Origin: Ascidia mentula
Taxonomy: Eukaryota; Chordata; Ascidiacea; Phlebobranchia; Ascidiidae
Direction: 5' to 3'
DNA: 64,000 bases
Assembly (NCBI GenBank): GCA_947561715.1
Contig: OX387205.1
Location: forward strand, 11,723,001-11,787,000
Shown: positions 1 to 64,000 of the stretch, in pieces
Layout: each line of letters starts with the position of its first letter
Numbering within the stretch: the stretch's first letter is position 1
Notes under the pieces: generated by a model
The model's database searches: none
What the model was told of the DNA's origin: nothing
What the model saw: only the letters and a program-made list of their open reading frames with translations
Translations under genes and position numbers: made by a program

Positions 1-134
1 CCCCATGTTAAAACTACCTGTAACAAAACCTGTTCTGGATATTTCATAAATTCCTCGGGGTTCACGAACCTGGGAACCACTTTCATAGACGATTCGAATA
101 CAATTGTCATGTGTTTCAAAAAAAGTTTGTTTAG

Positions 135-8709: not shown

Positions 8710-9998
8710 TCCTCTAGGTCCACCACACGGATGTTATTTAAAATAGTCCTCTATCTCCATCATGTGGATGTTATTTAAAATAGTCCTCTATCTCCATCAT
8801 GTGGATGTTATTTAAAATAGTCCTCTAGCTCCACCACACGGATGTTATTTAAAATATTCCTCTTTCTCCACCACACAGATGTTATTTAAAATAAACCTCT
8901 ATCTCAACCACACGGATGTCATTTAATATAGTCCTCTATCTCCACCACAGGGATGTTATTTAAAATAGTCCTCCATCTCCCCACAGGGATGTTATTTAAA
9001 ATAGTCCTCCATCTCCCCACAGGGATGTCATTTAAAATAGTCCTCTATCTCAACCACACGGATGTGATTAAAAATAGTCCTCTATCTCCACCACACGGAT
9101 GTTATTTAAAATAAACCTCTATCTCAACCACACGGATGTCATTTAAAATAGTCCTCCATCTCCCCACAGGGATGTTATTTAAAATAGTCCTCCATCTCCC
9201 CACACGGATGTTATTTAAAATAGTCCTCTATCTCCACCACAGGGATGTTATTTAAAATAGTCCTCTATCTCCATCATGTGGATGTTATTTAAAATAGTCC
9301 TCCATCTCCCCACAGGGATGTTATTTAAAATAGTCCTCCATCTCCCCACAGGGATGTTATTTAAAATAGTCCTCTATCTCCACCAAACGGATGTTATTAA
9401 AAATAGTCCTCTATCTCCACCACACGGATGTTATTTAAAATAGTCCTCCATCTCCCCACAGGGATGTTATTTAAAATAGTCCTCTATCTCCACCACACGG
9501 ATGTCATTTAAAATAGTCCTCTATCTCCCCACAGGGATGTTATTTAAAATAGTCCTCCATCTCCCCACAGGGATGTTATTTAAAATAGTCCTCTATCTCC
9601 CCACAGGGATGTTATTTAAAATAGTCCTCCATCTCCCCACAGGGATGTTATTTAAAATAGTCCTCTATCTCCACCACACGGATGTTATTTAAAATAGTCC
9701 TTCATCTCCCCACAGGGATGTTATTTAAAATAGTCCTCTATCTCCCCACAGGGATGTTATTTAAAATAGTCCTCTATCTCCACCACACGGATGTTATTTA
9801 AAATAGTCCTCTATCTCCACCACAGGGATGTTATTTAAAATAGTCCTCTATCTCCATCATGTGGATGTTATTTAAAATAGTCCTCTATCTCCACCAAACG
9901 GATGTGATTAAAAATAGTCCTCTATCTCCACCACAGGGATGTTATTTAAAATAGTCCTCTATCTCCACCACACGGATGTTATTTAAAACAGTCCTTTA
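8710..9998 (+). repeat. Minisatellite, forward arm of palindromic array 1
   Basis: About 35 tandem units alternate between a 37-bp form (AGTCCTCTATCTCCACCACA then CGGATGTTATTTAAAAT) and a shorter form with TCCCCACAGGG in the centre. They run forward and stop near 9998. An open frame read through the units is a by-product of the repeat and is not a gene. Confidence 0.95.
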
Positions 9999-10517
9999 TT
10001 TTGAATAACAACCGCGTGGTGGAGCTAAAGGACTGTTTTTAATGACAACTGCATGATTGAGCTAAAGGACTATTTTAAATAACAACCGCATGGTAGGGCT
10101 AGAGGACTATTTTAAATAACTACCGCATAATGGAGCTAGAGGACTATTTAAATAACAACCGTGTGGTGGAGCTTGAGGAATATTTTAAATAACAACCGCA
10201 TAATGGAGCTAGAGGACTATTTAAATAACAACCGTGTGGTGGAGCTTGAGGAATATTTTAAATAACAACCGTGTGGTGGAGATAGAGGACTATTTTAAAT
10301 AACAACCGTGTGGTGGAGATAGAGGACTATTTTAAATAACAACCGTGTGGTGGAGATAGAGGACTATTTTAAATAACAACCGTGTGGTGGAGATAGAGGA
10401 ATATTTTAAATAACAACCGTGTGGTGGAGATAGAGGACTATTTTAAATAACAACCGTGTGGTGGAGATAGAGGACTATTTTAAATAACAACCGTGTGGTG
10501 GAGATAGGGGACTATTT
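9999..10517 (-). repeat. Minisatellite, inverted arm of palindromic array 1
   Basis: About 14 units of the same family run in the opposite direction (TTTTAAATAACAACCG then TGTGGTGGAG). At the turning point AACAGTCCTTTA faces TAAAGGACTGTT around a spacer of about 27 bases, so the array can fold back on itself. The half nearest the centre carries older variants (GCATGGTAGAG). The half nearest gene B is nearly uniform. Confidence 0.93.
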
Positions 10518-19114: not shown

Positions 19115-19360
19115 AAAACGTCCATTGTTCGAGATATTTATTTGAAACTACAAACCAACCCCGCATAAAATAAAAAGTGTTTCTGAACGCGACACGGCAA
19201 TTTTGATCATAGACGCCGACCGATTAATTGTTTAGCAAGCACACATTTACTGCGTCAATCAAGTTTGATAGCACAGCTATTGTACAGTGCACATGAGACA
19301 AGCAAGCAATGAAGGGAGGGACCGAACGAGATTTTTGCGCTGGGGTCAAAAGCACAATAA

Positions 19361-20342
19361 TCCTCTAGGTCCACCACACTAATGTCATTTAAAATAGTCC
19401 TCTATCTCCCCACACGGATGTCATTTAAAATAGTCCTCTATCTCCACCACACGGATGTTATTTAAAATAGTCCTCTATCTCCACCACACGGATGATATTT
19501 AAAGTAGTCCTTTAGCTCCACCACACGGATGTTATTTAAAATAGTCCTGTATCTCCACCACACGGATGTCATTTAAAATAGTCCTCTATCTCCACCACAC
19601 GGATGTCATTTAAAATAGTCCTCTATCTCCACCACACGGATGTTATTTAAAATAGTCCTCTATCTCCACCACACGGATGTCATTTAAAATAGTCCTCTAT
19701 CTCCACCACACGGATGTTATTTAAAATAGTCCTTTATCTCCACCAAACGGATGTGATTAAAAATAGTCCTCTATCTCCACCACACGGATGTCATTTAAAA
19801 TAGTCCTTTATCTCCACCAAACGGATGTGATTAAAAATAGTCCTCTATCTCCATCACACGAATGTTATTTAAAATAGTCCTCTATCGCCACCATACGGAT
19901 GTCATTTAAAATAGTCCTCTATCTCCACCAAACGGATGTCATTTAAAATAGTCCTCTATCTCCACCACACGGATGTCATTTAAAATAGTCCTCTATCTCC
20001 ACCACACGGATGTTATTTAAAATAGTCCTCTATCTCCACCACACAGATGTCATTTAAAATAGTCCTCTATCTCCACCACACGGATGATATTTAAAGTAGT
20101 CCTTTAGCTCCACCACACGGATGTTATTTAAAATAGTCCTTTATCTCCACCAAACGGATGTGATTAAAAATAGTCCTCTATCTCCACCACACGGATGTCA
20201 TTTAAAATAGTCCTTTATCTCCACCAAACGGATGTGATTAAAAATAGTCCTCTATCTCCACCACACGGATGTCATTTAAAATAGTCCTCTATCGCCACCA
20301 TACGGATGTCATTTAAAATAGTCCTCTATCTCCACCACACGG
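19361..20342 (+). repeat. Minisatellite, forward arm of palindromic array 2
   Basis: About 26 units of the 37-bp family run forward. The short TCCCCACAGGG form is essentially missing, unlike array 1. A multi-unit higher-order period is visible because the same runs with AAACGGATGTGATTAAAAAT and GATGATATTTAAAGTAG recur. Confidence 0.94.
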
Positions 20343-20356
20343 AACAAATCACGTTT

Positions 20357-20898
20357 TAAGACTATTTTTAATAATATGTGCGTGTTGGAGCTAGAGGACC
20401 ATTTTAAATGACAACCGCATGGTAGAGCTAGAGGACTATTTTAAATGACTACCGTATGATAGAGCAACAGGACTATTTTTAATAACAACCGCATGTTAGA
20501 GCTAGAGGTCTACTTTAAATAACAACCACATGATGGAGCTAGAGGACTATTTTAAATAACAACCGCATGATAGAGCAACAGGACTATTTTTAATAACAAC
20601 CGCATGTTAGAGCTAGAGGTCTACTTTAAATAACAACCACATGATGGAGCTAGAGGACTATTTTAAATAACAACCGCATGGTAGAGCAAGAGGACTTTTT
20701 TAAATAACAACCGCATGGTAAAGCATGAGGACTATTTTGAATAAAAACCGCATGGTAAAGCTAGAGGACTATTTTGAATAACAACCGCATGGTAGAGCTA
20801 GAGGACTATTTTGAATTACAACCGCATGGTAGAGCTAGAGGACTATTTTGAATAACAACCGCATGGTAGAGCTAGAGGTCTGTTTTAAATAACAACCG
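20357..20898 (-). repeat. Minisatellite, inverted arm of palindromic array 2
   Basis: About 15 reverse-oriented units (TTTAAATAACAACCGCATG then GTAGAGCTAGAGGAC) follow a 14-bp transition at 20343-20356. They are close to the older variants in the inverted arm of array 1. Confidence 0.92.
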
Positions 20899-41100: not shown

Positions 41101-43527
41101 TTATAATCAATATAAATTTTCGGCCAAATCTGAACAGAATATTTGTACCATGATCAATAACAGAAAATACACTTTTTATAGCTATATTACTAACGTAAAT
41201 ATCAGTTTAGGAAAATAAACCTCACAAATTGTTGAAGTAATAAATTATACGAACCTATCTGTTATATATCCAAACACAAATACTCCGATCAAAGCGCCAC
41301 TTAAATAGATGGATGTTGCCAAGAAGTCAAGCCAGGCATCATCACAAACAAGGTTAAACTAAATGATAATAAACCCAAAAGAATAAAATTGCAGTGGATG
41401 AGGTACTTGCTGAGATCATAGATAGATGGTCAACACAAATTGTTAAAATTGCTTTAATTGAAAAAGAACATCTCTGACCCAATTGTGTAATATTATGAAT
41501 TTTGTGAGGTGCAGACAGATGGCCACAGTTGCGACCCATAAGGTTTCATCAGAGCAGCTTGACTCATTCTAATAATGCCCCATTAATACTGTTGGCACCA
41601 CTTTGATAATATATGCTTAATATTATGTTTACAACCAAACATGGTTACCTCAGTAATAACAGTCTGACTGAAGGTACTTCGATCATATTCATATCCTTCG
41701 TCACATTTTATCACAGGTGTAGAGTAATTGAAGCATTCATTTGAAGTGGTGCTTGCATTTTGATACTGATATCTGCGAAAACAATATTACAAGTTGCAGT
41801 AATGTCAATGTTATAAAACTATATTTGAGAGGAATGAAATAAAGATATTAGTCCAGTCATAGCGCTTATAGTTCAAGTCTCAATTCACGTTGTTTTGGAG
41901 GCTTTGACATAACAATTGAAACCTACTGCGGCTACCTGAAGCAATAGTCATAAGTACCATCTTCATTTTGTGGAGTTGTTATGTTGAAAATATCTTCTTC
42001 ACTCAATCCACTGGTGCAGTTTGTGTTGCTTAGTTTGCATCTGACAAAAGACATGTGATATAATTCATACAAAAGTCGGCTCCGCAAAATCGGTTTCACG
42101 ACAAGAAATTTCAGCAGAAAAGGATATAACAGTGTTGCAAACCTAACGTTGTTGAGTACTAGTTGTCTAGCGTGAAGGACGCATATTGGTATTTCTATGA
42201 AAATTAGTTTTGGTGCTGGGAAATGCCCACCGTGTAGACCTGTGTCACAATGCAAAGTCATGCATCACCAAGCAGAGCAGTGACGCAATTTAGTTAAATT
42301 TACGGTTGAATGAGCGCACTTGTGCGTGCTGTTGTCATGGCGAATTTTAGGGTGTTTGGGGCAGTTTTAGTGGGGTTTTGAGCTATTCCAATTAGGTAGT
42401 AACTTGCTGGTGGGTGCTGCTGAAATTTATGTTGAAAATGGAGCAAAAAAATCAGGCTGTGTTTGTGGCAAAATGAATCGTTTAAGTGTCCAATCATTTG
42501 TGATTTTATGAAAGATCCATTTCATATCTACAAATTTTGATCAAAATTAGTCTCCGAAAAAATGGTTTAGCCACCCCCCTAGGGCCATTTGCCACCCTGG
42601 TTACTCAATATTTTGGTTAAAAGTGCAACCAAAAATGGAACTGGATTTTGCAGAAAAATGAATCGTTCAACTACCCACTCATTTGCATTTTTTTGTAAGT
42701 TCCAACTCTTCTCTATGCGATGGCATCAAATTTAGTTGCTGTAAAAGTGTCAATGCCTTCCCCCAAGGGCTGGGTATACCCCCCTGTTGGTCATATGATC
42801 TTCCAGGAGGCCCAAAAAGTCCTTGCTCTGTACAGTCTCATCCAGGAGCAATTTTTTTTTTCAACTTTGTAGAATTTTAAGTCCCTACGTAAGTCACAAG
42901 ACCCATCAACGGTCATTGGGAAACAAGCGGAACAGTCGCTAGATGCATTGCAGCCGAGGGCCTTGAAAACAGGATTTCTCCAATCTAATACCCATATAGG
43001 TCCTTAAACAGGAGGACACCGCCTCATATATACACAATTTGTACAAAATGTGTATATTGATTGAAATACATCGTGAAATAAAGTCTTTTGGTGCAAAATT
43101 TTCCCGCGTTTTGCCAAAGGTTTAAATTTCTTTGCAATTTTGAAGACACCAAAAGAAGTAACCACATTACCCTACGATTTTTGCAAATAATCAATACACT
43201 TTAATGCCTTCGGTGATAAATATACCACATTCATAAAGTAGTACATAACTTGGATAATTTGTCACGTCAAAAATGACTGACGTTACGAATCACAAAATGT
43301 GCTTGCAAGATGGCTTTACACAGACATCTCTACTAAAAAGCTGGAAATATTTCGCAAACCTAAGAAACGTTACGTAATTACCTGTAATCTGGAACGTAAT
43401 TCAAGAAAATGGGCGACATAGTGTTATAGCCAACCAGAAGACTGCTGTACGATACCATCAATATTAACAATATTTGGTATCTTCCCATTCCACCAAGTTT
43501 GGTTAAAACCACGTCAAAATCAATCAT
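38111..43527 (-). CDS. Gene E: SLC22-type transporter, intact, 576 aa
   Basis: The exons from the ATG are 43382-43527, 41936-42040, 41649-41772, 41255-41358, 40975-41129, 40754-40878, 40566-40670, 40348-40437, 40198-40286, 39942-40024, 39245-39394, 38901-39009, 38435-38695 and 38111-38195. E and G share subgroup residues: TMSPIF in exon 1, YITDR in place of YISDR before the GRK motif, QSVDVSE in exon 8 and ELFPTVIR in exon 12. Exon 5 reads CESGVY where all others have GSG or [11 protein letters not shown] and DWTGRR are intact. Exon 14 is three codons shorter than in A but ends SALDGTEL, a PDZ-type end. Intron 1 holds a full family 2 element. Intron 3 holds a hammerhead-related repeat. E is nearly identical to G over long stretches. 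Confidence 0.92.
41508..41559 (-). ncRNA. Hammerhead ribozyme-related repeat, decayed (intron 3 of E)
   Basis: On the minus strand, CUGAUGA is kept and stem I could form partly (AGCUGCU against UGCACCU). The conserved GAAA reads GCAA and stem II is shortened, so cleavage is not expected. It is nearly identical to the copy in intron 3 of G. Confidence 0.7.
42177..43003. mobile_element. Non-autonomous TIR element, family 2, full copy
   Basis: Ends are imperfect inverted repeats, GGACGCATATTGGTATTTC and (inverted) GGACCTATATGGGTATTAG. Gene G has the empty site (GCGTTAAACAGG). In E the flanks are TGAA and TTAA, so the target duplication is TTAA with one later change. The interior resembles family 1 (AATGAGCGCAC, TTTGGGGCAGTTTTAGT), so the two families are related. 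No transposase. Confidence 0.85.
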
Positions 43528-44118
43528 GGTTCTAATTTTGTTCCAATTACTATAAGCGACTACTTTCTATAACTCCTAACCATCAGGCAAACGTTGCTGT
43601 ATTATACTCAGATTGGCTGAAATTGTACAAAGCTGCGATTAATTGCTGCGACTTCCTTTTCATTGCTTGGTCTTTTGATAAGCAGAAGTGTTGTGCGGGA
43701 CAAAGTCTTCAGAATTGGTTAATAATTACTGGCACTTGATATCATGTTTGATTGTTCCTGGTTAAGTCAGCACACGTTGGCATGGTTGTTTCAAAACAAA
43801 AGGCACAAGCTCTGTCATTGATCGAAATCTTGACCATTTGATATCTCAATACCAAAACTTGGACAAACCAAGTGTGAAAAGCTTGGGTTTATGTTCGAGT
43901 GCATTTCCTTCCACAAAATGCGAGGTTGTCAGCTGGTTGGGGCACAGCAAATGTTGCCTAATCAAACAATCACGTCGTGTGCAAAAGAATCGTCAACCAG
44001 TATTTGTCACACTTCGCAGTCGCACAGTCATGTTAAATCTGCTCATGCTGAATGCGCGGCTTACAAACACTTACTTTTATGATAAGCAATGTGGAGCCAA
44101 TAATATGAATTGTGTATA
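43528..44118. other. 5' flank of gene E
   Basis: The flank is nearly identical to 58395-58988 upstream of G. The 93-codon open frame at 43838-44119 (+) is present in both, but that reflects recent duplication of the whole block. It resembles no protein. The promoter-proximal block of genes A-D is not seen. Confidence 0.5.
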
Positions 44119-44171
44119 AGCTGCAGACAGATGGCCACTGTTTCGACCTAAAAGGTCTCTCCAGTGCAGCT
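44119..44171 (-). ncRNA. Hammerhead ribozyme-related repeat (upstream of E)
   Basis: Stem I (AGCUGCA with UGCAGCU), stem II, CGAAAC, stem III (ACAG with CUGU) and the GUC cleavage triplet are all present. The first core box reads CUGGAGA instead of CUGAUGA, which should abolish cleavage. Confidence 0.8.
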
Positions 44172-45438
44172 GGTGTGACTATAAGACGACTTTGCTGACC
44201 AAACTTACTTTTATGTTTGTTGGCATATGTGGAATGCTCGTAATTTCGTAATTTATGGCTAGATACATCCAACAAACAACTGTTAACACCATTGACCAAA
44301 CTTAAATTGATAAACACAGACCACCCCAAATTAAACGTAAGCACACAACGAGATTACACCATATTATGCCCACTAAATGCCGATGATTTCAGTCACTCGA
44401 CCAACAGACTGACGTAGGGGTATATGGTGATTTTTGTTTGTACCACATGGATTTATCCTATTTGGGGATAAAACAACAATTTTTTTTGCAAGGGAAATGC
44501 ATGTCAGTAACAAAAGACGATGTCATAACTAATTAATTGCAGTTTTGCAGAAGTACTGCCACAGCAGGAAGCCAGGCAATTTTCGTGTGATGAATGTTTT
44601 GTCTTCAGCCTTAGGCGCCTGCCTCGATTGCTCGCTTGTCTCATGTGCCCTGTGCAGTAGCAGCGGTTTTAGTTGGTTGTACCACTGGGAGAGACTTCAT
44701 GCCATTGGGGGAGACTACATGAATTGTATGTTTGCTAAACTTGTTTCAGTCGTTAACCATCACAATATCAGATAAGTTATTTTTATAGTCGGTAACAAAA
44801 CATCATTTAAAATTTAATCTGTGTCTTGATTCGTGATGAATCGAATGACGTGGCATGAATTGTGATGAGAGTGTCGCAAGAAAAAGGCAGCACGCGACGG
44901 TACATTGTTTTAACATAATTTGTGTTTTTCACACAGATGGCGACTGTTCTACGTCTTTTTTTTTGTTTCACCTTCGGTTTTCCACACTTTCCCTCTTAGT
45001 AACTATTCCTTTTACATGCCCCAATGGGGTTGCATGCTTGGCGTACGTTTGCTGCGAAAACGATCTGTGTTGGAAAACAGGTAGTTCTCTGTTGCGTTGA
45101 TAACACGGAGCGCAGTCGCATGGCGCTGAGTTTGTTGTATGTGCTAGTATGGGACGCTGTTTGATTGGCACAGTTTAAAAGGTTGGCATTTTTAATTTTT
45201 GTTTATTTCTAGCGCCTTCTTTTCAATATGAAAGTAGTCACCTTTGTCACGTGACTCGAACAACCTTGGTTTTAGGGTCGAAAGGAGGAATTTAAACACG
45301 ATGGTAGCATTTCATCATAATCTGTCGCTACAGTCAGTCATAAAATTGTCGTGAAAAGTTCATTGGGTGCGATAATATTTTTCAATATCATATGGAGTTA
45401 TTTTGTAGCTTCAATTAAAAATCTCTATTAGACGTTTT
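44172..45438. other. Intergenic stretch between genes E and F
   Basis: The stretch carries the recurring block (about 44600-44730) and a stretch shared with 37500-37740, then the 3' flank of F. No gene is seen. Confidence 0.5.
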
Positions 45439-50341: not shown

Positions 50342-50428
50342 TCATAGATGGCCAAAACAAAGTGTTTAAATTGCCTAAAATGAAAAAGAACATCTCTGAA
50401 CCAAATGTGTAATAATATGAATTTTGTG

Positions 50429-50481
50429 AGGTGCAGACAGATGGTCATCATTTCGACCAAAAAGGTTTCATCAGAGCAGCT
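50429..50481 (-). ncRNA. Hammerhead ribozyme-related repeat, decayed (intron 3 of F)
   Basis: CUGAUGA and GAAA are kept, but the closing pair of stem II is lost and stem III is weakened (AUGAUG against AUCUGU). Activity is unlikely. Confidence 0.65.
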
Positions 50482-51592: not shown

Positions 51593-52456
51593 GATTCTAA
51601 ATTTGTTCCAATTACTATAAGCGACTACTTTCTATATTTCCTAACCATCAGGCAAAAGTTGCTGTATTATACTCAGATTGGCTAAAATCGTGCAAAGCTG
51701 CGATTAATTGCTGCGACTTCCTTTTCATTGCTAGGTCTATTGATAGGCAAAAGTGCCATGTGGATCAAAGTCTGCAGAACGAATAAAACCAATCGCACGT
51801 TTTGTTCATAGCGAAAGTTAAATTAAAACTAGACAATGCCGACTGTGCAAGGCAGAAGCGCTATTCGTGTTACCAGATCAAATGCTGCAAAAATTGGTTA
51901 ATAATTTCCAGAGCTTGATATCATGTTTGATCGTTCCTGGTTTTGTCTGCACACGGTGGTTGAGGCACAGCAAAAGTTGTCTAATCAAGCAATCACATGT
52001 AGCACTTCGCAGACGCACAATCATGTTAAATCTCCTTGTGAACACGCGACTTACATACACTTAGTTTGATGATGGTTAACAGATGTGTAATGTAAGTCAG
52101 TAATTTATAATCAGTTACATCCAACAAACAATTGTTAACATTACTGACCAAACATAAATCGACAAACACAGACCGCTGCAAACTAAACGTCAGCACACAA
52201 CGATTTTAGTCGACTAACAGACTGACCTAGGGCTGTATGGTGATTTTTGTTTGTACCACAGGGATTTATCCTCAACGATAAAGTTGTTACAAAACTGCGA
52301 TAGTAAACAAATGTTTATGACTTCCCCTTTTCCATGACAAACGTTGCGCTACTGCAATTTACGAATGACGATCCACAATTATTAACGCCTGCAGCTCCCG
52401 TGTTCCACCACCAACAATTATAGAGTGAATTTGTTTGCGCAAAAGAGCCATAATAA
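51593..52456. other. 5' flank of gene F
   Basis: The flank is homologous to those of E and G but more diverged. No gene is seen, and the A-D promoter block is absent. Confidence 0.5.
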
Positions 52457-52529
52457 TCAATGAGAGCTGCAGACAGGGTGTATACACGCACTGTTTCGAC
52501 CTGTAAGGTCTCATCAGTGCAGCTGTTGA
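52457..52529 (-). ncRNA. Hammerhead ribozyme, complete core (upstream of F)
   Basis: Read on the minus strand, all parts of a self-cleaving hammerhead are present. Stem I is AGCUGCA (plus 52518-52524) with UGCAGCU (52465-52471). The first core box is CUGAUGA (52511-52517). Stem II is GACCU with AGGUC closed by UAC (52498-52510). GAAA is at 52494-52497. Stem III is ACAG with CUGU around an inner hairpin that can form from GUGUAUACAC. The GUC triplet ends at 52472, so cleavage would fall between 52472 and 52471. UCAA and UUGA could extend stem I by 4 bp across a one-by-four internal loop. Such loops aid folding in natural hammerheads. Short stem III versions are typical of ribozymes carried by animal retroelements and small retrozymes. 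Confidence 0.88.
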
Positions 52530-54182
52530 AGTGGCACTATGCTACCTGGTAGACTAGCAGGCACACAGATTTCCACTTTGTGGTATCTTTCGGTCAATCG
52601 TCGATATGTTGGGTACCAAACAGTGAATTTGATTGTTGAAAAGTAAAATGAAGTCTTTACTATGTGACATCACTGATTTGTGCGTAAAGGAATAAACAAT
52701 TAATTAATACACACTAGCTTATAAAGGATTGCCATCGGTTGTCACTGTGCCTGTTCCTGTGAAATAAGGGACGACTGAGAATATTATATTACTAAAAACG
52801 GTAACAGGAAGCAGAGTCTTTTGACTTAACTATTTGCCCGAAACAGACAAAAATCTCTAAAGTTTCTCTGACGAACTCTCTAAATAACAATTATTACTTA
52901 AATAAAGTAAAGCGCTACCTATACTACGCTAAAGTTGCAGGTACATTTCGGTTCCCTTTTTCTTTTCTTCCCGCTTCCAACTCATCGCTTTTATTGGCTT
53001 TATCTAACTCACAGATTCCCAACCTTTTTTCTTCAATTCAACCCCTGACAACCCTTGAAGAATAACTTTACCCTCCTTTGGTGGATTTCTGTTTGGCAAT
53101 TAATATCCCAACTGTTATCAAGAGAAATAATATTTTGATAATAACCTTAAGGTTTACCATGCACAGGTTTCTTTCGTCAAGCAGGATGATTGAGAAATAT
53201 AACGAGGTTGATTGAACTTTGATTAATTTAAATGCATTACACTTATAAATACTAATTACCATTGTTGGCTTTGAAAAGATTTCCACATTTAGGGAATGTG
53301 GAACCATAAAGCAGTAATAACGACATTGCACTAATTCCATTATTTGTTATTGGTCGGGTAGTATGTATAAATAATCCTATCGATTAAACCAGAACTTAAA
53401 GGGGTTGATGAGGAGTTATTTTTAACCTCTTTAAAGACATTTATGAAGTTACATTTGTTTCACACATTCCTCACATACGCAGTCGAGAGCAGAAAGCCAC
53501 AAGCTTTATTGACGTAAATCGCGGTGAGCACTTTGCCTTCAGCAAGAAAAAGTTCGTTCGGCGCCTGTCTTGATTGCTTGCTTGTCTCACGTGCACTGTA
53601 CAATATGTGGTTTCATTTGGTGCAGCCTACTAGTAGATTGTTGTTTGTGAAGTCACACTTGGTTTGCAGTTTATTTACGCTACAAAAATGTTTGATCTGA
53701 TGTCTTTAAGAATGTAGGAATTATATGCTTGCTATACTTGCTGTTTCAATCGTCCAACATCAAAGTATCAGGTAAATTACATGCAATTAGACGGTCTGTG
53801 TTTGTATTAGAATTGTCATGGGAAGACCGTCGTGTTTGGTAACACTTTAAATGTCATCTGCGGGGTTAGTTTGTTTATTTTTGGAGATAAATCTCGAACA
53901 GTCGACGTTTTGTCAAAGTTCGGTTCCACATATTCAGATTATGCCTCGTGTTTTCATTCACTTTTGGCTTAGTCATGTCCCTATTGAAGGAACAATTCTT
54001 TGTAGAACTTAACGCAGTTGTTTAGCATTGAAATGATAAGCAAAGCCTTAAAAAATCAAGGAACGACATGGAAGACGCAAGAGGTTTATTTAAACGCAGT
54101 TTTTGCAAGTGTTGAAGATATGTTTAAGAAACCATTGACATAAATGCATGACAGATACTTCTTTCGTGCTGGGAAGTACTAA
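52530..54182. other. Intergenic stretch between genes F and G
   Basis: About 52560-53540 matches nothing else in the window and has no supportable gene. The 90-codon minus frame at 53068-53340 is hydrophobic but unrecognised. From 53540 the recurring block appears, and a degraded exon 14 of G (about 53880-53993, antisense) follows with its frame broken. Confidence 0.5.
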
Positions 54183-57100: not shown

Positions 57101-58394
57101 TAAATGATGATAAATTCAATAAATAAAATTGAAGGAACTTGCTGAGATCATAGATAGATGGTCAACACAAATTGTTAAAATTGCTCTCTGACCCAATTGT
57201 GTAATATTATGAAGTTTGTGAGGTGCAGACAGATGGCCACAGTTGCGACCCATAAGGTTTCATCAGAGCAGCTTCACTCATTCTGATAATGCCCCATTAA
57301 TACTGTTGGCACCACTTTGATTATATATGCTTAATATTATGTTTATATAAACAATCATGGCAACCTCAGTAATAACAGTCTGACTAAAGGTACTTCGATC
57401 ATATTCATATCCTTCGTCACATTTTATCACAGGTGTAGAGTAATTGAAGCAGTCATTCAAAGTGGTGCTTGCATTTTGATACTGATATCTGCGAAAACAA
57501 TATTACAAGTTGTAGTAATGTCCATGTTATAAAACTATATTTTAGAGGAATGAAATAAAGATATTAGTCCAGTCATAGCGCTTATAGTTCAAGTCTCAAT
57601 TCACGTTGTTTTGGAGGCTTTGACATAACAATTAAAACCTACTGCGGCTACCTGAAACAATAGTCATAAGTACCATCTTCATTTTGTGGAGTTGTTATGT
57701 TGAGTATATCTTCTTCACTTAATCCACTGGTGCAGTTTGTGTTGCTTATTTTGCATCTGACAAAAGACATATGCTAAAATTTAGACAAAAGTCGGCTCCG
57801 CAAAATCGGTTTCACGACAAGAAATTTCAACAGAAAAGGATATAACAGTGTTGCAAACCTAACGTTGTTGAGTACTAGTTGTCTAGCGTTAAACAGGAGG
57901 ACACCGCCTCATATATACACAATTTGTACAAAATGTGTATATTGATTGAAATACATCGTGAGATAAATTTTCCCGCGTTTTGCCAAAGGTTTAAATTTCT
58001 TTGCACCTGAAGACTCCAGAAGAAGTAACTACATTACCCTACGATTTTTGCCAATGTTCAAAACACTTTAATGCCTTCGGTGATAAATATACCACATTCA
58101 TAAAGTAGTACATAACTTGGATAATTTGTCACGTCAAAAATGACTGACGTTACGAATCACAAAATGTGCTTGCAAGAGGGCTTTAGACAGACATCTCTAC
58201 TAAAAAGCTGAAAATATTTCGCAAAACAAAGAAACGTTACGTAATTACCTGTAATCTGGAACGCAATTCAAGAAAATGGGCGACATAGTGTTATAGCCAA
58301 CCAGAAGACTGCTGTACGATACCATCAATATTAACAATATTTGGTATCTTCCCATTCCACCAAGTTTGGATAAAATCACGTCAAAATCAATCAT
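54183..58394 (-). CDS. Gene G: SLC22-type transporter, open to an early stop after exon 13, 548 aa
   Basis: The exons from the ATG are 58249-58394, 57652-57756, 57365-57488, 56996-57099, 56716-56870, 56495-56619, 56311-56415, 56090-56179, 55940-56028, 55686-55768, 54994-55143, 54650-54758 and 54183-54444. Exon 13 ends AIIYR followed by TAG, whether or not the GTTAGT donor at that point is used, because a spliced exon 14 beginning with G would also give TAG. The cytoplasmic tail with the PDZ-type end is thus missing. The transport core is complete ([30 protein letters not shown]). Exons 1-12 are nearly E. The last part of exon 13 (DTIEEAELFYESRNVGSRNT) and the 3' flank are nearly H. Confidence 0.9.
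57221..57273 (-). ncRNA. Hammerhead ribozyme-related repeat, decayed (intron 3 of G)
   Basis: It is the same as the copy in intron 3 of E: CUGAUGA is kept, GAAA reads GCAA, and stem II is short. Confidence 0.7.
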
Positions 58395-58988
58395 GGTTCT
58401 AATTTTGTTCCAATTACTATAAGCGACTACTTTCTATATTTCCTAACCATCAGGCAAAAGTTGCTGTATTGTACTCAGATTGGCTGAAATCGTGCAAAGC
58501 TGCAATTAATTGCTGCGACTTCCTTTTCATTGCTTGGTCTTTTGATAAGCAGAAGTGCTGTGCGGGACGAAGTCTTCAGAATTGGTTAATAATTACTGGC
58601 ACTTGATATCATGTTTGATTGTTCCTGATTAAGTCACCACAGGTTGGCATGGTTGTTTCAAAACAAAAGGCACAAGCTCTGTCATTGATTGAAATCTTGA
58701 CCACGTTTTGATATCTCAATGCCAAAACTTGGACAAACCACGTGTGAAAAGCTTGGGTTTATGCTCGAGTGCATTTCCTTCCACAAAATGCGAGGTTGTC
58801 AGCTGGTTGGGGCACAGCAAAAGTTGCCTAATCAAACAATCACGTCGTGTGCAAAAGAATCATCAACCAGTATTTGTCACACTTCGCAGTCGCACAGTCA
58901 TGTTAAATCTGCTCATGCTGAATGCGCGGCTTACAAACACTTACTTTTATGATAAGCAATGTGGAGCCAATATTATGAATTGTGTATA

Positions 58989-59041
58989 AACTGCAGACAG
59001 ATGGCCACTGTTTCGACCTAAAAGGTCTCACCAGTGCAGCT
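58989..59041 (-). ncRNA. Hammerhead ribozyme-related repeat (upstream of G)
   Basis: All helices and the GUC triplet are present. The first core box reads CUGGUGA, one base from CUGAUGA at an essential position, so cleavage should be lost or very slow. Confidence 0.8.
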
Positions 59042-59201
59042 GGTGTGACTATAAGACGACTTTGCTGACCAAACTTACTTTTATGTTTGTTGGCATATGT
59101 GGAATACCCGTAATTTCGTAATTTATGGCTAGTTACATCCAACAAACAACTGTTAACACCATTGACTAAACTTAAACTGATAAACACAGACCACCCCAAA
59201 C

Positions 59202-62600: not shown

Positions 62601-64000
62601 AAAGATTGATGTTGCAAAGTAGTCAAACCAAGCATCATCACAAACAAGGTTAAACTAGATGATAAAAAAGCCGAATAAAATTGAAGTAAATGAGGTACTT
62701 GCTGAGATCATACATGGTCAAAACAAATTGTTAAAATTGCTTGAATTGAGAAAGAACATCTCTGACCCAAATGTGTAATATTATAAATTTTGTGAGGTGC
62801 AGTTCTATGGTCACTGTTTCGACCAATAAGGTTTCATCAGTGCAGCTTGTTCTATAAATACTATTGACATTCTATTAAGGTCCTATAAATACTATTGACA
62901 CCACTTTGCTTGTATATGTATGGTATTATGTTTACGTAATCAAACATGGCAACCTCTGTAATAACAGTCTGACTGAAGGTACTTCGATCATATTCATATC
63001 CGTCGTCACATTTTATCACAGGTGCAGAGTAATTGAAGCAGTCATCTGAGATGGTGCTTGCATTTTGATATTGATATCTGCAAAAACAATATTGCAAGGT
63101 ATGGCATTGACCATGCCATATAACCATATATCGGAGGAATTATATAAAGATGTTAGTCTACTCAGATATTACTTCAAGTCTCAATTCACGTTGTATTGGA
63201 GGCTTTCACATAACAGTTAAAATCTACTGACGTTACCTTGAGCAATAGTCGAAGGTACCATCTTCCTTTAGTGGAGTCGTTATGTTGAGTATATATTCTT
63301 CACTTAATCCATTGGTGCAGTTTGTGTTGCTTATTTTGCATCTGAAAAAAGACACATGATAAAATTTAAACAAAAGTCGGCTTCGCAAATAGTGTTTCAC
63401 GACAAGAAATTTAAACAGAAAAGGATATAACGGTGTTGCAAACCTAAACATTGTTGCCGACAAGTTGTCTAACGTTAAACAAGGGGACACTGCCTTATAT
63501 GAAAACACAATTTGTACAAATCATGGATATTGATTGAAATACATCGTGAGATAAAGTCTTTTGGTGCAAAATTTTCCCGCGTTTTGCCAAATACTCTATT
63601 TAAATTTTTCTGGTACTTTGAAGACTCAATAAGAGGTAACTAGATTACTCTACGGCGTTTGCAAACAATAAATACGCTTATATGGCTTCGGTAATAAATA
63701 TACTATATCACATCGTGAATAAAAATACATAACTTTGACAATTTGTCACGCCGAAAATGACTGGCGTCACGAATCACGAAAATAAATTACTGAGGCGCGA
63801 AAATGCGCCTTGGCACAGTTTGTCAAGGCGAATTTTTTGCAAGTGCTGGTAAGAGGGCTTTATTAAATCTTCTTCCCTCCTGTAACTGTAAAAATAACTC
63901 TACTAAAAAGCAGGAAATATTTCGAAATCCTAAGAAACGTTACGTAATTACCTGTAATCTGGAGTGTAATTAAAAAAAACGGGCGAAATAGTGTTGTAGC
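59693..64000 (-). CDS. Gene H: SLC22-type transporter, 5' end cut by window
   Basis: The exons are 63952-64000 (partial exon 1), 63237-63341, 62954-63077, 62551-62654, 62288-62442, 61781-61905, 61594-61698, 61369-61458, 61209-61297, 60919-61001, 60482-60631, 60268-60376 and 59693-59954. Everything visible is open. Exon 13 ends AIINR followed by TAG, as in G, so the tail exon is not translated. A decayed exon 14 remains near 59430-59511. Distinct residues include FGRKLTM, CCFVHNLW and GTLNGNIFTNN. The exon 11 donor is GTTGGA, weaker than the others. [14 protein letters not shown] and ELFPTVIR are intact. Intron 5 (61906-62287) is longer than in other copies because of unrelated sequence at about 61945-62270. 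Confidence 0.9.
62795..62847 (-). ncRNA. Hammerhead ribozyme-related repeat, decayed (intron 3 of H)
   Basis: CUGAUGA and CGAAAC are kept. The cleavage side reads AAC in place of GUC, and stem III is lost on that strand, so no cleavage is expected. Confidence 0.7.
63342..63951. other. Intron 1 of gene H
   Basis: The intron is homologous to intron 1 of E, F and G (GACACCGCCT, TTTTCCCGCGTTTTGCC). No transposon insertion or gene is seen. Confidence 0.55.

What the first reader, a model, noticed from the sequence alone, without database searches (positions are those of the whole stretch)
52457..52529. Complete hammerhead ribozyme beside a transporter gene
On the minus strand the sequence has CUGAUGA, a 5-bp stem II (GACCU/AGGUC), GAAA, a 4-bp stem III, a GUC cleavage triplet and a 7-bp stem I. 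An extra UCAA/UUGA helix lies beyond an internal loop. Every invariant position of the hammerhead is met. It is transcribed in the same sense as gene F if read-through or its own transcription occurs. The motif itself is well known, but its presence as a repeated element in this cluster would be worth describing.
Basis: partly seen in the sequence, partly recalled or inferred. Interest (0 to 1): 0.9.

Follow-up and report, generated by a model that had tools for sequence, protein, structure and literature searches.

The report
Hammerhead ribozyme in a jumping repeat
The self-cutting RNA motif is real, and it sits in a small non-coding jumping repeat with many copies in this animal's genome; the copies' ends suggest the repeat is moved by the enzyme of a known larger jumping gene (a Penelope-like element), and the nearby transporter gene is probably coincidental.

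Summary
Minus strand 52529-52457 is a complete type I hammerhead (stems 7, 5 and 4 bp, GUC, cut 52472/52471). My structural scan finds one complete hammerhead in the window, against 0.04 expected. Rfam scores it below threshold.

It is not specific to the transporter. It lies in a 5'-truncated insertion (52434-52621) flanked by 10-bp target duplications, one copy of a ~293-bp non-coding repeat. Its 33-nt core occurs 403 times exactly in the 196-Mb own genome (control 0). Four related families (285-293 bp) form tandem repeats; the ribozyme is better conserved than the rest. Six other window copies are decayed relatives; two show a filled site against an empty paralogue. This matches published animal non-LTR retrozymes.

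New here: the copies carry the insertion signature published for Penelope-like elements (PLEs): head-to-head pairs, ~12-bp duplications, and two alternative 3' ends ("tail"). In 27 of 29 independent resolved pairs one outer end is long and the other short; 7 of 7 PLE insertions read in this genome do the same. This supports PLE enzymes moving retrozymes, which the papers I read infer from co-occurrence. Cleavage and circular RNA were not tested.

The parts
52434..52621 (-). Retrozyme insertion (family A, 293-bp monomer), 5'-truncated, one ribozyme; 3' end of the long (tail-bearing) class, +36 nt after the cut
   Evidence: 97.3% identical over 186 bp (52436-52621) to genome copy L033; ends
52457..52529 (-). 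Type I hammerhead ribozyme including the outer UCAA/UUGA helix
   Evidence: Sequence; structural scan; 403 exact copies of the 33-nt core
52471..52472 (-). Predicted self-cleavage site, between C 52472 and U 52471 (GUC^U)
   Evidence: Hammerhead geometry; not tested experimentally
52424..52433 (.). Target-site duplication, left copy AGTGAATTTG
52622..52631 (.). Target-site duplication, right copy AGTGAATTTG
58952..59072 (-). Family-B retrozyme insertion with a mutated core (CUGGUGA), flanked by a 13-bp duplication ACTTACTTTTATG (58939-58951 and 59073-59085); the 52-kb paralogue has the empty site
44078..44204 (-). The same family-B insertion in the duplicated gene unit, core mutated (CUGGAGA)
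   Evidence: 96.1% to L089 over 128 bp; alignment
50411..50480 (-). Old decayed family-B fragment in a transporter gene unit
   Evidence: 82.2% over 73 bp
41489..41558 (-). Old decayed family-B fragment (GAAA changed to GCAA)
   Evidence: 82.2% over 73 bp; sequence
57203..57272 (-). Old decayed family-B fragment (GAAA changed to GCAA)
   Evidence: 82.4% over 74 bp; sequence
62777..62846 (-). Old decayed family-B fragment; cleavage side lost
   Evidence: 78.1% over 73 bp; sequence

Best explanation
The hammerhead is the ribozyme of a non-autonomous, non-coding retrotransposon of the animal non-LTR retrozyme kind. Tandem 285-293-bp units would be transcribed; the ribozyme would cut the RNA into units, and a host ligase would close them into circles (inferred from published retrozymes, not tested here). 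The RNA is then copied into new sites by the reverse transcriptase and GIY-YIG endonuclease of Penelope-like elements (PLEs) in the same genome. Shown here: family, tandem units, ribozyme conservation, target-site duplications, an empty site, head-to-head pairs and two 3'-end positions. Because the 3' ends lie 10-50 nt downstream of the ribozyme cut, the template was continuous across that cut: a circle or an uncut multimer, not a self-cleaved linear unit. The window copy is one such insertion, 5'-truncated to a single ribozyme, so it cannot make a unit-length circle alone; at most it would cut a read-through transcript at 52472/52471.
For: Copy number: 403 exact cores, control 0; 1174 with up to 3 mismatches, control 0. 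Units of 293, 285, 291 and 287 bp in tandem. Ribozyme versus body identity between single real copies: A-C 59/60 vs 165/242, A-D 58/60 vs 167/236, C-D 59/60 vs 199/233, A-B 46/60 vs 124/242, B-C 46/60 vs 103/251, B-D 45/60 vs 103/245. Of 69 exact cores in 60 sampled loci, 59 lie in a complete hammerhead (sampled by the core). Duplications of 8 bp or more at 42 of 71 insertions (segmental duplicates not removed), against 2.2% when flanks are mismatched; modal length 12. Empty site for the family-B insertion. 3' ends cluster at +10..19 and +36..50 while 5' ends scatter (114 pieces). Opposite-strand neighbours are (-,+) in 10 of 10 pairs among the first 100 listed cores and 17 of 17 pairs among 121 GIY-YIG matches, 3' ends outward. 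Of 29 independent pairs with both ends classed, 27 are one long plus one short (label-shuffling P <= 1e-5). PLEs in the genome: an 886-aa ORF with RVT_1 and GIY-YIG, tandem spacing 2870 bp; they carry a minimal hammerhead-like motif (224 hits, control 0). In 7 of 7 head-to-head PLE insertions read, one end is long and one short. [quoted passage not shown]
Against: No RNA data: cleavage, circles and transcription are not shown. Rfam scores are below gathering. 5' ends are not enriched at the cut: 3 independent events within 2 nt, about 1.6 expected by my own reckoning, so the genome keeps no clear trace of cleaved templates. The published PLE enzyme uses mainly unprocessed RNA and does not need its hammerhead in vitro, and it showed no start-site difference between strands (PMC11167929), so the ribozyme may not be needed for insertion. 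No PLE with a tail like the retrozyme's was found: in 26 GIY-YIG or PLE loci (some overlapping) the best 30 rows are other family-B-like copies and short weak matches, among them 24 bp of tail C in L014 at E 0.041. The long/short limits were set after seeing the histogram; 10 of 39 independent pairs had an end outside both classes and were left out. Two (+,-) adjacencies of pieces of different families also occur (L045, L078). Of 71 insertions, 29 show no duplication of 8 bp or more.
Confidence: 0.82

Rival explanations
1. A regulatory hammerhead of the transporter gene cluster: the ribozyme cuts the transporter's transcripts to control them.
For: Same strand as the neighbouring MFS exons; hammerhead-like copies sit at repeated places in the cluster.
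Against: Same core in 402 other places; insertion bounded by a duplication; the six other window copies have decayed cores or stems, which shows no selection to keep them in these genes.
Confidence: 0.04
2. Retrozymes mobilised by a LINE-type reverse transcriptase rather than by PLEs.
For: Variable 5' truncation, a fixed 3' region and ~12-bp duplications are also LINE-like; LINEs are named as candidates in PMC7229834. I did not survey LINEs in this genome.
Against: Two alternative 3' ends, one of each in 27 of 29 head-to-head pairs, match the PLE tail and inverted-copy structure and the same genome's PLEs (7 of 7 read). In the 23 element ends printed I see no shared poly-A tract.
Confidence: 0.1
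3. A satellite array spread by unequal exchange, with the ribozyme a passenger.
For: Some loci are tandem arrays (L089, L069).
Against: Dispersed copies on several contigs with duplications, an empty site, and ribozyme conservation above the rest of the unit.
Confidence: 0.02
4. Chance resemblance, not a ribozyme.
For: Rfam below gathering; ordinary folding energy.
Against: 0.04 complete motifs expected per 64 kb; 2767 core matches against 5 in the reversed control; ribozyme region preserved between families whose bodies differ.
Confidence: 0.02

Closest known systems
Animal non-LTR retrozymes with type I hammerheads (Cervera and de la Pena 2020, PMC7229834)
   Same: Type I hammerhead in ~170-400-bp tandem units, G+C below 50%, dispersed, duplications longer than 4 bp, co-existing PLEs with minimal hammerheads.
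   Different: I could not compare unit sequences (none printed in the text I read); species unknown; head-to-head pairs with complementary long and short ends are not described in its main text; RNA not examined here.
Penelope-like elements (PMC11167929; Adineta vaga Penelope, PMC3846280)
   Same: Head-to-head inverted copies, 8-10-bp duplications (here modal 12), an optional tail at one of the inverted ends, two RT start sites downstream of a hammerhead. Tail ~28 bp here (medians +13 and +41 after the cut), 27-38 bp in five PLE insertions of this genome, 30-40 bp published.
   Different: The retrozyme codes for no reverse transcriptase or GIY-YIG enzyme; its start sites lie closer to the cut (PLE: about +62..70 and +90..102); its hammerhead has a 4-bp stem III, not the minimal PLE form.
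Plant LTR retrozymes (PMC4918200)
   Same: Non-autonomous, ribozyme-bearing retroelement.
   Different: Plant ones have type III hammerheads, LTRs and 4-bp duplications (as told in PMC7229834; I saw PMC4918200 only in a search listing).

Membership tests
Type I hammerhead ribozyme | Core CUGANGA...GAAA, three stems, NUH before the cut, stem I open | tested here: met
Type I hammerhead ribozyme | Reaches the Rfam gathering score | tested here: not met
   best 31.5 of 56.3 bits (RF03152). A curated threshold of particular families, not a chemical definition
Type I hammerhead ribozyme | Self-cleavage at the predicted site | not testable with these tools
   Needs transcription in vitro or RNA ends
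Type I hammerhead ribozyme | Tertiary contact of loops 1 and 2 | not tested
   Loops present; no three-dimensional test run
Animal non-LTR retrozyme | Hammerhead inside small tandem units of ~150-450 bp | tested here: met
   285, 287, 291, 293 bp; the window copy itself is a truncated single unit
Animal non-LTR retrozyme | G+C below 50% | tested here: met
   47.0-48.1% in four reference units
Animal non-LTR retrozyme | No protein-coding region | tested here: met
   Longest open stretch in four joined units 70-119 codons, wrap-around included; these stretches were not searched against protein families
Animal non-LTR retrozyme | Dispersed insertions with duplications longer than 4 bp | tested here: met
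   42 of 71 with 8 bp or more, control 2.2%; empty site
Animal non-LTR retrozyme | PLEs with minimal hammerheads in the same genome | tested here: met
   the PLE motif is by pattern only, Rfam gave no hammerhead match on L028 and L034 at E up to 1
Animal non-LTR retrozyme | Abundant unit-length circular RNA | not testable with these tools
   No RNA data
Mobilised by a PLE | Two alternative 3' ends (tail), head-to-head pairs, short duplications | tested here: met
   PLEs of this genome the same in 7 of 7 read
Mobilised by a PLE | A PLE in the genome sharing the recognition or tail sequence | tested here: inconclusive
   None convincing in the 26 loci compared; most PLE copies were not read
Penelope-like element | ORF with reverse transcriptase and GIY-YIG | tested here: not met
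   The unit has no ORF of that size; it is non-autonomous

The most novel reading that the evidence does not exclude
Animal retrozymes are parasites of Penelope-like elements, and their insertion scars record the PLE mechanism: both target strands prime reverse transcription, and within one insertion the two strands use different start sites on the template, one giving the tail-bearing end (about +41 after the ribozyme cut) and the other the tail-less end (about +13). The template is continuous across the cut, consistent with a circle.
Probability: 0.7. Interest if true: 0.68.

Novelty: new member of a known kind. Interest (0 to 1): 0.5.

Why it matters
Which enzyme moves animal retrozymes is left open in the papers I read; the support for PLEs given there is co-occurrence, shared hammerheads and tandem layout (PMC7229834; repeated in PMC11722881, 2024). 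Here the scars of the retrozymes carry the signature that PMC11167929 reports as unique to PLEs, in a genome whose own PLEs show the same rule. This makes the question testable with a purified PLE protein and a retrozyme RNA.

Tried and rejected
Regulation of the transporter: rejected, see rivals. Empty site for the 52.4-kb insertion: none in the window. In the genome only the right flank (52640-52900) was searched: besides itself 22 partial matches, none reaching the first 124 bases next to the insertion; the left flank was not searched. 5' ends as a fossil of ribozyme cutting: L038 and L039 (duplicates of one event), L042 and L074 lie within 2 nt of the cut, 3 independent events against about 1.6 expected (expectation reckoned by hand). 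Not significant; two further rows at that position (L089) are an artefact of the five-unit query. Rfam on L028, L033, L034 and L047: sub-threshold hammerhead matches on the retrozyme loci L033 and L047, none on the PLE loci L028 and L034 at E up to 1, so the PLE motif rests on its pattern count, stem II pairing (4 or more pairs in 34 of 36 distinct sequences, 3 being forced by the pattern) and the base before the cut (not G in 35 of 36, 36 sequences typed from the 100 listed). Similarity of PLE and retrozyme tails: none convincing. Species: mitochondrial COX1 on contig C79 reads with the invertebrate mitochondrial code, but I could not name the animal. Covariation in the family-A ribozyme: not attempted, the copies are too alike. 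Published minimal PLE hammerheads (PMC5785218, PMC4209133) are not held, so no comparison of letters. Structure prediction and scans of viral, metagenome or genome collections: not used.

Full report
WHAT IS THERE. The window lies at G000:C73:11723001-11787000 of a 195.8-Mb genome in 79 contigs. Its COX1 reads with the invertebrate mitochondrial code, so it is an animal; I could not name it. It is the only structurally complete hammerhead my scan finds in the window; a random-sequence control gives 0.04 per 64 kb. Rfam does not reach gathering; the best hammerhead match is RF03152 at 31.5 of 56.3 bits.

IT IS A MOBILE REPEAT. Searching the own genome with 52440-52545 (-) gave 46 matches from 40 scored candidates of 1902, the best other copies at 98%. 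The 33-nt core occurs 403 times exactly (217 + 186) and 1174 times with up to 3 mismatches, reversed control 0 in both. A looser hammerhead pattern gives 2767 against 5 in the control. Pairs 293 bp apart show tandem units. Using single real copies as references, I distinguish A (293 bp, L033; the window copy), B (285 bp, tandem array L089; window copies at 44.1 and 59.0 kb and four older ones), C (291 bp, L065) and D (287 bp, L069). The ribozyme is better kept than the rest: A-C 59 of 60 columns against 165 of 242, A-D 58 of 60 against 167 of 236, C-D 59 of 60 against 199 of 233, A-B 46 of 60 against 124 of 242. Of 69 exact cores in 60 sampled loci, 59 lie in a complete hammerhead. Predicted circular folds are more stable than shuffles (z -2.1 to -3.4, 100 shuffles each).

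INSERTION STRUCTURE. The window copy spans 52434-52621 and is flanked by AGTGAATTTG on both sides. In the same gene cluster, the 44- and 59-kb paralogues carry a family-B insertion flanked by ACTTACTTTTATG (13 bp), where the 52-kb paralogue has the empty site. For 71 sampled insertions (identity at least 91%, not at a locus edge; segmental duplicates not removed), 42 have a direct repeat of 8 bp or more at their ends, against 2.2% when left and right flanks of different insertions are combined; the commonest length is 12. Among 114 pieces of at least 45 bp and 91.5% identity, 5' ends are scattered over the unit but 3' ends fall mainly into two groups, +10 to +19 and +36 to +50 nt after the ribozyme cut.

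PENELOPE SIGNATURE. In the first 100 listed cores, opposite-strand neighbours within 1 kb are (-,+) in 10 of 10 cases; of the 121 GIY-YIG matches, opposite-strand neighbours within 6 kb are (-,+) in 17 of 17 (duplicated loci not removed). Both kinds of element thus form head-to-head pairs with their 3' ends outward. In the sampled loci there are 44 such retrozyme pairs, and two (+,-) adjacencies between pieces of different families (L045, L078). Of the 44, 32 have both outer ends in the two groups, and 30 of these are one long and one short; of 51 unpaired pieces, 33 end long, 11 short and 7 elsewhere. After grouping pairs with shared flanks, 39 independent pairs remain, 29 with both ends classed, 27 of them one long and one short; none of 100,000 label shuffles reaches that (P <= 1e-5). 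The limits of the groups (3-21 and 32-60) were set after seeing the histogram; the other 10 independent pairs have at least one end outside. Seven head-to-head PLE insertions of this genome (L019/L020, L028, L034+L035, L118, L119, L120, L121) were read: in 7 of 7 one outer end is longer than the other. In the five with an internal reference the short ends lie at about +62 to +70 and the long ones at +90 to +102, 27 to 38 bp apart (ungapped comparison); in L120 and L121 only the short ends were placed (+69, +70). The flanks share 12 bp in 5 of 7 and 7 and 8 bp in the other two (L118, L120). The minimal hammerhead-like motif of the PLEs (224 hits, control 0) lies about 175 bp beyond the GIY-YIG match where I compared the two lists by eye; the base before the cut is not G in 35 of 36 distinct sequences, and stem II has 4 or more pairs in 34 of 36, 3 being forced by the pattern.

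COMPARISON WITH PRINT. PMC7229834 (read: parts 1 to 4 of 6, which hold the main text) defines animal non-LTR retrozymes: type I hammerheads in ~150-450-bp tandem repeats, low G+C, expressed as circles, with PLEs a strong candidate for mobilisation because of shared hammerheads, tandem copies and co-existence. PMC11722881 (passages) repeats this in 2024. [quoted passage not shown] its hammerhead is not needed in vitro. It saw no start-site difference between strands; the complementary ends found here would be a refinement. [quoted passage not shown] PMC7761336 (passages) agrees on PLEs as candidates. I found no paper describing the tail or the complementary ends in retrozymes; searches made: read as listings except for the papers named here. 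Papers outside that open library, including the two on PLE hammerheads, were not seen.

MECHANISM, SHOWN AND INFERRED. Shown: repeat family, ribozyme conservation, duplications, empty site, end positions, pair architecture. Inferred from the sequence: the template ran across the ribozyme cut, because inserts with 3' ends at +13 or +41 extend upstream through it; it was therefore a circle or an uncut multimer. Loci were sampled by the ribozyme core, so inserts that stop before it are missed. Inferred from print: transcription, self-cutting, ligation to circles. Inferred from matching architecture: the PLE enzyme. Not shown: any RNA.

VERDICT. A real hammerhead, ordinary in kind, in a retrozyme insertion with no sign of a tie to the transporter gene. 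The added value is the end signature, which supports PLE mobilisation of animal retrozymes directly from genome sequence.

Noticed in passing
window 8710-10517 and 19356-20898: Two places where arrays of a 37-bp minisatellite meet in opposite orientation; a mir-67-like hairpin (30.9 bits, E 0.0064, below the cut-off of 53) lies at the junction 9952-10035 and is probably the inverted repeat itself.
   Followed up: no
L090 1473, L091 1078, L092 925 (G000 contig C1): Another repeated core, CTGATGAAGGCTG followed by ACC or AGCC and GAAACG, with stem II (weaker in L090) but no clear stem I; in L091 and L092 it is followed by TC, giving a palindromic ACGU where stem III should be: perhaps a minimal PLE-type hammerhead that works as a dimer.
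   Followed up: partly
L034 3933-6593, L035 (C67:6130000-6149800): Tandem Penelope-like elements, unit 2870 bp, with an 886-aa reverse transcriptase plus GIY-YIG frame, in a head-to-head arrangement.
   Followed up: partly
window, whole: Cluster of MFS-type (SLC22-like by eye, recalled) transporter gene units, with long stretches of roughly 70-90% identity between units.
   Followed up: partly
retrozyme pairs: The long end lies on the left (minus-strand copy) in 20 and on the right in 7 of the 27 one-long-one-short pairs; no reason known, as left and right depend only on the assembly.
   Followed up: no
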